Below are positions 11,200 to 13,873 of a stretch of 39,697 nucleotides of DNA, piece after piece. A program made the translations under genes and the position numbers. The DNA is from Candidatus Krumholzibacteriia bacterium. Its GTDB lineage: Bacteria > Krumholzibacteriota > Krumholzibacteriia > JAJRXK01. Location of the stretch: positions 1 to 39,697 of the forward strand of contig JAOZPE010000021.1 of NCBI GenBank assembly GCA_029932915.1, in the 5' to 3' direction. Positions within the stretch are counted from its first letter, which is position 1, and each line of letters begins with the position of its first letter. Under the pieces are notes generated by a model. The model was not told the origin of the DNA. It searched no databases and saw only the letters and a list, made by a program, of their open reading frames with translations.

Positions 11200-11236
11200 C
11201 AACAGAACTGTTGGTGGATTGTGTTGTGAAACAACA
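11200..11236. promoter_or_regulatory. Paired palindromes, candidate enhancer sites for the sigma54 activator
   Basis: CAACAGAACTGTTG (11200-11213) and TGTTGTGAAACAACA (11222-11236) are two perfect dyads built from the same half-sites CAACA/TGTTG, with centres about 22 bp apart. A further CAACA half-site is at 11277-11281. They lie about 160-190 bp upstream of the predicted start of the RNA at 11394, where enhancer-binding proteins usually bind. Alternatively they could be operators for the amidohydrolase gene, whose start is about 140-170 bp away on the other side. Confidence 0.5.
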
Positions 11237-11366: not shown

Positions 11367-11383
11367 TTGGCACCTCCAGTGCT
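11367..11383 (+). promoter_or_regulatory. Sigma54 -24/-12 promoter
   Basis: TTGGCACCTCCAGTGCT carries GG (11369-11370) and GC (11381-11382) at the required 12-bp spacing. It matches TTGGCACG-N4-TTGCT except for C after CAC and G for T in the -12 box. The predicted start is near 11394. It has no protein gene downstream; what follows is the structured RNA and its terminator. Confidence 0.65.
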
Positions 11384-11393
11384 GTAGAGGTGG

Positions 11394-11767
11394 ATGTCCC
11401 ATGGATGGTTCCGGCGACCCAGGCGAGGGGGCCGGCGGAACGACGAGTGGAAAGGGACTGCGTAGACGGACGACCCGGGACGGCTCGGGCAAGGCAGCGC
11501 ACAAGACCGGTCACCCCACCCGACGTCACGTCACGACCGGAGGCCCCTGGAGGGGCGGCGTTGCGAGCCGGCGGGTTGCCGTCGAACAAAGAGGACCGGG
11601 GGAGTTGGCGAGAGCTCCTGAAGATGCCGCCCGGCATCGCGCGGTCCTCCTGACAACGCAGAGGCGGCGGTGCTCTTGGCGAGGGGGCATCGCAAGCCGG
11701 CCCCAAGGCAGCGTTGTCAGTCTCCAAGCGGGGCGCCCTTGGCGAGAGGGGTGCCCCGCTTCTTTTT
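11394..11767 (+). ncRNA. Candidate structured small RNA with repeated UGGCGAG loops
   Basis: A predicted transcript of about 374 nt between the sigma54 promoter and an intrinsic terminator. Helices seen by eye: hairpin A 11408-11441 (GTTCC/GGAAC and CCC/GGG) with loop AGGCGAG. A three-way junction is closed by GAGGACCG 11591-11598 with CGGTCCTC 11642-11649; it contains GGAG/CTCC (11601-11604 and 11615-11618, loop TGGCGAGA) and GATGCC/GGCATC (11623-11638). Immediately abutting is CTGACAACGC 11650-11659 with GCGTTGTCAG 11711-11720, which encloses the 9-bp stem 11667-11675/11685-11693 with loop TTGGCGAGG. The terminator hairpin again has loop TGGCGAGA. Three of these loops are closed by the same T-G wobble. 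No match to RNase P RNA, tmRNA or SRP RNA was recognised. Repeated identical loops suggest multivalent binding of a protein or RNA partner; that role is inference. Confidence 0.6.
11726..11767 (+). terminator. Strong Rho-independent terminator
   Basis: Stem AAGCGGGGC (11726-11734) with GCCCCGCTT (11753-11761) is perfect over 9 bp and continues through a G-T wobble and CCC/GGG. The loop is TGGCGAGA and a TCTTTTT tract follows. The T-tract fixes the orientation as plus, so something must be transcribed from the left even though no protein gene is there. Confidence 0.85.
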
Positions 11768-11794
11768 CCTGCCTTTCTGTCATGTCCGGTCCTG

Positions 11795-13873
11795 TCATCT
11801 CTCCAGGTGGGTCTGGAACCACGACAGTCCCTTGCCCTGGAGGGCCTCGATCACCGGCCGATAGGCGCGGGGGAGACGGGGAAAGGATGCTTCGAGCCGG
11901 TCTTCACGGAGCGCCTGCAGGGCATGGCCCAGCACCCGCTGCGTTCGCAGGGCCACCCGATGACGGGGGCGCGCCTGCCCGCACAGGCGGTCGATCGTGG
12001 CCTGCAGCTCGCCGGTCTCCAGGAAGGCGGCCAGGGTCTCCCCGTCCAGGTAGTGGTTCATCTGGGCGCGGTCGGTGACCAGCACCTGCCGACCCCGGCG
12101 GCGTTCGTCGGCGAGCTGGCGGCTGGCCTCGAGGAGATTGAAACCGCACTGGCGCCAGACCCGCAGGATCTGGGCCCCCGGCGTCTCGTCCCCTTCCCAC
12201 GGCCCCTTCCTTCGCGGGGTCTCCTCGTCCCCTTCCCGTGTTCCCTTCCTTCGCGGGGTCTCCTCGTCCCCTTCCCACGGCCCCTTCCTTCGCAGTGCCT
12301 CCTCATCGCCTTCCCGCGCCCGGCCCCCTTCCCGTGGCGTCTTCCCTTCCGGCAACACCCGGCCTTTCCGTGGATGTGCTCCTTCCCCGGGAATCGAGGG
12401 CCGGCCGGGCAACTGCTGGCTCTCGAAGACCTCGTGCAGATGTTCCAGGGTGACCCGGCGCTGCTGCCGGCTGCGGATGGCCAGGGCCTCGACCATGTTC
12501 TGCAGCTCGCGCACGTTGCCGGGGAAGCTGTGGTGGCGCAGGGCGGCGAGCACCTCCGGGTCGATGGGCGGTTCGTTCATCCCGAAGTCGGCGTAGAAGC
12601 GCTTGAGGAAGGCCCGGGTGAGGATCTCGATGTCGCCGCGGCGTTCCCGCAGGGGAGGCAGGCGCAGGGGATAGACCTGGATGCGGTAGAACAGGTCCTT
12701 GCGGAATTCACCGCGGGCGACGGCCTCCCGCAGATCGACGTTGCTCGCGGCGATCACCCGCACGTCGACCGAACGGGTCTTCTCGCCTCCGACCGGGCGG
12801 AAACGGCCCTCCTGGAGGGCCCGCAACAGGCGGGTCTGCGAGGCCAGGGTCATCTCGCCGATCTCGTCGAGGAAGAGCGTGCCCCGGTGGGCCAGCTCGA
12901 AGGCGCCGCGCCGGTCGCGGACCGCGCCGGTGAAGGCGCCCCGCACGTGGCCGAAGAGTTCGCTCTCGATGAGTTCGCGGGGAATCGACGAGCAGTCGAC
13001 GATCTCCAGCGGACCTTCCCGCCGCGGCGAGAGCCGGTGGATGGCCCGGGCCACCACCTCCTTGCCCGTTCCACTCTCTCCTTGGATCAACACGGTCACC
13101 CGGCTGTTGGCGAGCTGCACCATGTCGCCGAAGAGACGCAGCATCGCCTCGCTCTCGCCGAGGATCTCCCGCAGGGGTGGATGGCGCTGACGCAGTTCGG
13201 CCAGCGCCCGGGAGACCTCGACCGGGACCTGCGGACTCGGAGGATGCAGGAGGGGCGCCGGCGAAGCCCCCCGTTCGAGGGCGAGCACGTAGAGTTCGGC
13301 CAGACTGGCGAAGACCTCCAGGTCCTTGGCCGAGTAGCCCTCGCTCAGGAGTCTTCGCCCCAGCACGATGAAGCCGAAGAGTCCCTGACGACCGGTCAGG
13401 GGGCAGACCACCGCGGCTTCCAGGCGTTCGAGGATGTCCACGTACGAGTAGAGGAAGGAGCGGGCCGGACCGCCGGTGAGATCGTCGTCCACCCGGAAGG
13501 GCCGGGGCTCGCCTTCCTGCTCGAAGGCCTCGGCCAGGGCCGCCGGCAGGGGCAGTTCGACCCTTTCCTCCAGGTCCAGACCCGAGTGCACGAGCAGGGA
13601 CATGCTCTCGCTTCGGGGGTCGCGCCGCAGGACCGCGGCCGAGGATGCCCCGAGGACGCCGATCACCGAGAGGAGGATGCGCCGGGCGCCGTCGTCGGCG
13701 TCCTGGGCCCGCAGCAGTTCGCGGCTGGTCTCCACCAGGGTGAGCAGCTCGAAGATGCGGGTCTGCAGTTCGTCCTTGCTGACCTGGGCGAAGTCGAGGT
13801 ACTCGCCGGAGAAGGGCAGCTCGCTCTCTCGGTCTCGGTCGATCACCGGATCCTCCCGACCGTGGATGGCCAC
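11795..13873 (-). CDS. GAF-domain sigma54-dependent transcriptional activator (enhancer-binding protein)
   Basis: 692 aa. The N-terminal 210 residues resemble a GAF sensor ([18 protein letters not shown], then [20 protein letters not shown]). The AAA+ domain follows, with Walker A GESGTGKE (Lys271), the sigma54-contacting GAFTGA loop (312-317), Walker [12 protein letters not shown], and the arginine-rich sensor region [12 protein letters not shown] low-complexity linker of tandem 13-residue units (about 519-562) separates it from a Fis-like helix-turn-helix ([22 protein letters not shown]). About 85 further residues after the HTH have no family counterpart that I recognise. Translation starts at GTG 13871-13873 with no Shine-Dalgarno but a TAGGCT 6 nt upstream. 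It converges on the structured RNA, 27 bp from that RNA's terminator, and is the natural candidate to activate the sigma54 promoter at 11367. The signal sensed is unknown. Confidence 0.9.
12187..12320. repeat. 39-bp in-frame tandem repeats within the activator gene
   Basis: Three units of 39 bp start at 12187, 12226 and 12265, with a partial diverged fourth from 12304. Each encodes 13 residues of the type [13 protein letters not shown] on the minus strand. The unit length keeps the frame, and copies 1 and 3 are more alike than copy 2 (PWE versus TRE). The repeats form the linker between the AAA+ domain and the HTH, and may vary in copy number between strains. Confidence 0.9.

What the first reader, a model, noticed from the sequence alone, without database searches (positions are those of the whole stretch)
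11367..11767. Sigma54-driven RNA with repeated UGGCGAG-loop hairpins beside a sigma54 activator gene
Seen: a -24/-12 promoter with exact 12-bp GG-GC spacing, no protein gene after it, and a strong plus-strand terminator at 11726-11767. In between are helices that abut without gaps (P1 11591-11598/11642-11649, then 11650-11659/11711-11720). Loops at 11606-11613 and 11740-11747 are identical (TGGCGAGA), 11676-11684 is TTGGCGAGG, and 11421-11427 is AGGCGAG; three are closed by a T-G wobble. Known: CrcZ-like and RsmZ-like RNAs use repeated binding motifs to titrate a protein, and CrcZ is made from a sigma54 promoter under an activator (CbrB). Inference: this is an unrecognised sponge-type or multivalent RNA under the neighbouring activator, with the terminator loop itself part of the repeat set.
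Basis: partly seen in the sequence, partly recalled or inferred. Interest (0 to 1): 0.88.

Follow-up and report, generated by a model that had tools for sequence, protein, structure and literature searches.

The report
New sigma54-driven structured RNA family
Next to a gene for a sigma54 activator, this uncultivated bacterium carries a roughly 370-base non-coding RNA with an elaborate conserved fold and several near-identical hairpin loops, a previously undescribed kind that probably works as a decoy or docking RNA switched on by that activator.

Summary
Window 11394-11767 encodes a real, previously unlisted structured RNA (no Rfam match). All four available genomes of the same GTDB family carry it. 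In each it starts at a -24/-12 promoter, ends in a terminator whose loop reads UUGGCGAGAG, and runs tail-to-tail with the same sigma54 activator gene. Compensatory base changes are extensive: 30 of 56 pairs in the 3' half and 12 of 16 in the central domain, in hand-made alignments. Each RNA has 4-5 hairpin loops containing GCGA, against about 0.4 in shuffles. No reading frame is open in all four. GTTGTG/CACAAC half-sites lie upstream of all four promoters, suggesting a dedicated activator-to-RNA circuit. In a second family the orthologous activator faces a sequence-distinct RNA candidate of the same layout.

The named models do not fit. None of six genomes has Hfq, so a CrcZ mechanism is out. 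CsrA is missing from the window's own genome and GGA is almost absent from hairpin loops, so an RsmZ mechanism is unlikely. The hairpin is not found elsewhere in these genomes above chance. A decoy for an unknown protein remains most likely (about 0.45). Expression and partner are untested.

The parts
11200..11213 (.). Upstream palindrome CAACAGAACTGTTG, second candidate activator site
   Evidence: Sequence; inverted-repeat scan
11222..11236 (.). Candidate upstream activating site TGTTGTGAAACAACA, about 135-150 bp upstream of -24
   Evidence: 0 expected in window. Only exact match outside long coding frames in the own genome. GTTGTG/CACAAC half-sites lie upstream of all four RNA promoters
11368..11383 (+). 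Sigma54 -24/-12 promoter TGGCACCTCCAGTGCT
   Evidence: Sequence. Homologues carry TGGCATTGTGGTTGC, TGGCACCCGTATTGC, TGGCACCGCCATTGC at the same place. rpoN present
11394..11767 (+). Non-coding structured RNA of about 370 nt; start inferred from the -12 position, end from the terminator
   Evidence: Homologues in all 4 genomes of the family; fold z -3.1; covariation
11418..11430 (+). 5' hairpin with loop AGGCGAG (weak stem in this genome; stronger counterparts in G003 and G001)
11465..11583 (+). Central domain closed by P0 (GACGG/CCGTC and CGACCCG/CGGGTTG)
   Evidence: Conserved topology in four genomes; 100% of 63 cells paired, 12 of 16 pairs with double-sided changes
11487..11494 (+). Bulge GGGCAAGG; GGCAAGG identical in all four genomes, followed by P0c (CAGCGC 11495-11500 / GCGTTG 11558-11563)
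   Evidence: Alignments
11591..11649 (+). P1 domain: P1 encloses hairpin A (UGGCGAGA loop 11606-11613) and hairpin B (loop GCCC 11629-11632)
   Evidence: 7 of 8 P1 pairs covary
11650..11720 (+). P2 domain: P2 encloses hairpin C (UGGCGAG loop 11677-11683) and hairpin D
   Evidence: 7 of 10 P2 pairs and 7 of 8 hairpin C pairs covary
11726..11767 (+). Intrinsic terminator with loop UUGGCGAGAG, last member of the loop set
   Evidence: found by plain BLAST in three relatives
11795..13873 (-). Sigma54 activator gene (GAF + AAA+ + unassigned C-terminal domain with Fis-like helix), convergent with the RNA
   Evidence: Pfam Sigma54_activat 1.5e-66, GAF_3 3.2e-6. Orthologues 56-60% identical beside the RNA in three other genomes

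Best explanation
The locus is a two-part regulatory unit. The activator (11795-13873, minus strand) senses a signal through its GAF domain, binds the GTTGTG/CACAAC palindromes upstream of 11368 and drives sigma54-dependent transcription of a stable non-coding RNA of about 370 nt that ends at 11767. The RNA folds into a 5' hairpin region, a junction domain (P0, with an invariant GGCAAGG bulge), two three-way domains (P1 and P2) and the terminator. It displays four to five near-identical GCGA loops (core UGGCGA), most likely as a multivalent binding platform that sequesters a so far unidentified RNA-binding protein which is neither Hfq nor, probably, CsrA. Shown by comparison: the RNA, its fold, its promoter, its terminator, its linkage to the activator. 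Inferred: control by this activator, transcription, protein binding and titration. My probability is about 0.92 for a real sigma54-driven structured RNA, about 0.8 for control by the neighbouring activator and about 0.45 for the decoy mechanism.
For: Homologues in all four family genomes, found first by BLAST and then by covariance model at E 3e-20 to 7e-27, with no hit at E <= 0.01 in 383 other genomes (the model was built from these four). Covariation: 98% of cells paired, 30 of 56 pairs with changes on both sides, 0 of 500 shuffles as good, partner slides fall to 41-57% paired; central domain 100% paired with 12 of 16 pairs. A G-U pair present in all four in hairpin A points to the plus strand. 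Fourteen hairpins from four genomes keep GGCGA invariant while their stems vary with pairing retained (94% paired). GCGA hairpin loops are about tenfold over shuffles in each genome. Promoters with exact GG-N10-GC in all four; rpoN in all. The activator is linked in 4 of 4, and in two genomes of a second family the orthologous activator faces a different sigma54-promoter and terminator unit. The palindrome is specific to this promoter.
Against: No expression data. The binding partner is unknown. Outside the RNA the hairpin is not found above chance, and the 12 best outside hits examined are all covered by long frames, so a protein titrated by it would have to recognise its normal targets in another form. 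Decoys such as CsrB are mostly strings of hairpins, whereas here long-range helices are strongly conserved, which asks for more than a set of binding sites. Only four homologues, hand-aligned.
Confidence: 0.5

Rival explanations
1. Base-pairing regulator: the repeated UGGCGAG loops are identical seeds that pair with CUCGCCA stretches of target mRNAs, several targets per RNA.
For: Loop sequence, not stem sequence, is what is conserved, which fits seeds as well as protein sites. Sigma54-driven base-pairing RNAs next to their activator exist (Qrr/LuxO, from general knowledge).
Against: No Hfq in any of six genomes. No conserved complementary site in the 5' part of the activator mRNA. Loops sit on strong stems, and the core GGCGA is invariant between genera without a visible partner.
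Confidence: 0.25
2. Architectural RNA: the loops are GNRA-like elements (GGCGA pentaloops; C-GCGA-G in the second family) that dock within or between RNA molecules, so that the RNA acts as a folded machine or scaffold.
For: Complex conserved architecture with an invariant GGCAAGG bulge and junctions. Hairpin D is capped by UNCG-type loops in two genomes. Second-family loops can be read as GCGA tetraloops.
Against: No receptor with covariation was found. The number of loops varies (4-5) between genomes, unusual for intramolecular docking.
Confidence: 0.2
3. CsrB/RsmZ-type sponge for CsrA.
For: CsrA genes exist in five of the six genomes; repeated loops resemble the CsrB layout.
Against: CsrA not found in the window's own 98%-complete genome. 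GGA occurs in 0-2 hairpin loops per RNA, while high-affinity CsrA sites have GGA in the loop (PMC7652899).
Confidence: 0.04
4. Chance or a misread coding region: ordinary high-GC sequence with fortuitous hairpins, or an overlooked protein gene (such as ORF 11401-12078).
For: High-GC sequence always gives long open frames and stable stems; frames are open here.
Against: Compensatory changes; in G001 every plus-strand frame has a stop, and similarity between translations is in inconsistent frames.
Confidence: 0.02

Closest known systems
CrcZ/CrcY (Pseudomonas), sigma54 RNA under CbrB that titrates Hfq
   Same: Sigma54 promoter, activator gene next to the RNA gene (for CrcZ, general knowledge), length (CrcZ 407 nt), repeated elements (PMC4063720)
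   Different: Six A-rich ARN repeats and Hfq in CrcZ; here GCGA hairpin loops, no Hfq, convergent gene order, no Rfam match
CsrB/RsmZ decoys of CsrA
   Same: Several near-identical short hairpin loops on one RNA
   Different: GGA loops and CsrA needed (PMC7652899); here GGCGA loops, almost no loop GGA, no CsrA in the own genome, long-range domain helices conserved
GlmY (enterobacteria), sigma54 decoy RNA under GlrR/QseF binding RapZ
   Same: Sigma54 promoter, adjacent activator gene, upstream activating sites, decoy role (PMC6075780; PMC8745638; PMC7073468)
   Different: No match to Rfam; larger, repeated loops; activator has GAF rather than receiver domain
Structured bacterial RNAs of unknown role found by comparative genomics (e.g. 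PMC2864571)
   Same: Complex covarying fold, narrow taxonomic spread
   Different: Here linked to a sigma54 activator and carrying a repeated loop set; not in Rfam 15

Membership tests
Sigma54-dependent regulatory RNA paired with its own activator gene | -24/-12 promoter in front of a non-coding transcription unit | tested here: met
   Four of four genomes; rpoN present
Sigma54-dependent regulatory RNA paired with its own activator gene | Adjacent enhancer-binding protein gene | tested here: met
Sigma54-dependent regulatory RNA paired with its own activator gene | Upstream activating sites for that protein | tested here: inconclusive
   Conserved GTTGTG/CACAAC palindromes specific to the locus; binding not shown
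Sigma54-dependent regulatory RNA paired with its own activator gene | Transcript dependent on rpoN and activator | not testable with these tools
   Needs a cultured or heterologous system
CrcZ | Rfam similarity to CrcZ | tested here: not met
   No Rfam family above chance
CrcZ | Hfq as ligand | tested here: not met
   No Hfq in six genomes; control genomes ring
CsrB/RsmZ | Repeated GGA in hairpin loops | tested here: not met
   0-2 loops per RNA
CsrB/RsmZ | CsrA encoded in the genome | tested here: not met
   Absent from G000, present in the other five; an assembly gap is possible
GlmY/GlmZ | Rfam similarity to GlmY | tested here: not met
GlmY/GlmZ | RapZ as ligand | not tested
Qrr | LuxO-type activator and Rfam Qrr match | tested here: not met
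   LuxO equivalog 258 bits against a cut-off of 800; no Rfam match

The most novel reading that the evidence does not exclude
A new class of complex, multi-domain regulatory RNA whose repeated GCGA loops are bound by a so far unknown RNA-binding protein (a post-transcriptional system independent of Hfq and CsrA), controlled by a dedicated sigma54 activator across two families of an uncultivated class-level lineage, with the RNA sequence replaced or diverged beyond recognition while the activator-to-RNA circuit persists.
Probability: 0.3. Interest if true: 0.82.

Novelty: new variant of a known kind. Interest (0 to 1): 0.66.

Why it matters
It is a clear, covariation-supported RNA family absent from Rfam, in bacteria without Hfq, with an unusually elaborate fold and a repeated loop that points to a specific partner. 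Because promoter, activator sites, activator and RNA form one compact unit, function can be tested in a heterologous host. If the loops bind a protein, that protein would be a post-transcriptional regulator unlike Hfq and CsrA. The second-family locus would let one ask how an activator keeps an RNA output while the RNA itself diverges or is replaced.

Tried and rejected
CrcZ-like Hfq titration: rejected, no Hfq. CsrA sponge: unlikely. Protein-coding reading: rejected. Other copies of the RNA in the own genome: none. Other UGGCGA hairpins as target sites in four genomes: at chance level; the 12 outside hits examined all lie under long frames. Other targets of the palindrome: remaining exact matches lie within long frames, flgE-like and yidC-like by reading the DNA. 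Pairing of loops with the activator mRNA start: no conserved site. Homology of the first-family and second-family RNAs: the model of the first does not recognise the second (best score at the place 9 bits, E 0.29, among noise), so they are reported as positional counterparts only. The Eisenbacteria relative of the activator (L028) has no RNA space: the next gene starts about 25 bp downstream. Loop A to loop B kissing in the P1 domain was considered by eye: 3 pairs in two genomes, 2 in G001, not supported. MAFFT alignments A1-A4 misplace P1 and P2; a hand structural alignment padded with N was used instead.

Full report
Observation. The transcript 11394-11767 folds to -196.9 kcal/mol against -177.5 for shuffles (z -3.1). 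Rfam has nothing for it or for its homologues.

Homologues. BLAST of the locus against 98 genomes found a long match in G003 (E 2.5e-7) and terminator matches in G001 and G002; these are the only other held genomes of the same GTDB family. In each, the intergenic region beside the orthologous sigma54 activator holds the same unit: a sigma54 promoter (TGGCATTGTGGTTGC, TGGCACCCGTATTGC, TGGCACCGCCATTGC), a GGCAAGGCRRCG block, GCGA-loop hairpins and a terminator ending next to the activator's stop codon. The activators are 56-60% identical to the window's.

Structure. A hand alignment of the 3' half (hairpins A and B inside P1, C and D inside P2, terminator) gave 98% standard pairs, 30 of 56 pairs with changes on both sides and a covariation score of 0.56 against 0.23 in shuffles and at most 0.12 when partners are slid. 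The central domain (P0, P0c around the invariant bulge GGCAAGG) gave 100% standard pairs and 12 of 16 pairs with double changes. These alignments were made by eye around the structure and so lean towards it. However, the single-sequence folds of the 3' half show P1, P2 and the terminator without alignment, and stem changes such as GAGGACCG/CGGTCCTC, CGGGTTCC/GGAACCCG, GAGTTCC/GGAACTC, GGGTTTC/GAAACCC are plain in the sequence. A conserved G-U pair in hairpin A, and the promoter and terminator, fix the strand as plus.

Loops. Fourteen hairpins from four genomes keep GGCGA invariant while stems change with pairing kept (94% paired). Each RNA has 4-5 hairpin loops with GCGA, against 0.38-0.55 in shuffles (0 of 60 each). 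GGCGA closed by U-G can be read as a GNRA-like pentaloop; this is inference.

Coding. No frame is open in all four homologues (G001 has stops in all three plus frames) and translated similarity falls in inconsistent frames.

Control. rpoN is present in all genomes. Upstream of the promoter lies TGTTGTGAAACAACA (11222-11236), with half-sites GTTGTG/CACAAC also upstream in all three homologues. The pattern is not expected by chance in the window. In the own genome its only other exact match is inside a long coding frame, and the extra matches in G001 and G002 also lie in coding frames. I infer that these are the activator's sites and that the RNA may be its main target. The activator has GAF and AAA+ domains and a C-terminal domain of about 120 residues without a Pfam or PDB relative, apparently a Fis-like helix pair with an extension.

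Spread. A covariance model finds the RNA only in these four genomes among 387 and, within the class of about 80 genomes, the activator with its C-terminal domain only in this family and in two genomes of a second family. In those two, the space downstream of the activator again holds a convergent unit: promoter-like TTGGCGCGCTCCCTGC or TTGGTCCAAAGCATGC, a 30-nt identical block GGGCTGCTGGGTAGCACGCGAGCTGCCGAG, GCGA loops and a terminator hairpin. It may be a diverged homologue or a replacement.

Mechanism. CrcZ titrates Hfq under CbrB and RpoN (PMC4063720); here Hfq is absent from all six genomes. CsrB-type RNAs present GGA in loops (PMC7652899); here GGA is nearly absent from hairpin loops and CsrA is absent from the own genome. 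The hairpin does not recur elsewhere in these genomes above chance. A decoy for another RNA-binding protein is the best-supported guess (about 0.45), ahead of a base-pairing regulator (0.25) and an architectural RNA (0.2).

Limits. One metagenome-assembled genome family, four homologues; organism name not given by the tools (the nearest full-length named activator relative is from a Candidatus Eisenbacteria MAG, which does not establish the window's phylum); no expression data.

Noticed in passing
L115 6575-6835 and L116 6572-6837, minus strand: In a second family the orthologous activator also faces a convergent sigma54-promoter and terminator unit with a 30-nt identical block and GCGA loops; sequence unrelated to the window RNA by model search.
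   Followed up: partly
window 11795-12157, minus strand: C-terminal domain of the activator (about 120 aa: Fis-like [20 protein letters not shown] helix pair plus extension) has no Pfam or PDB relative; found in two families of the class, in an Eisenbacteria MAG (L028) and weakly in G085.
   Followed up: partly
G000-G004, G008: No Hfq in any of the six genomes; CsrA present in five but not found in the window's own genome.
   Followed up: no
window 11726-11767 against 11795: The terminator lacks a T run on the minus strand, so activator mRNA may read into the RNA gene and give antisense to it.
   Followed up: no
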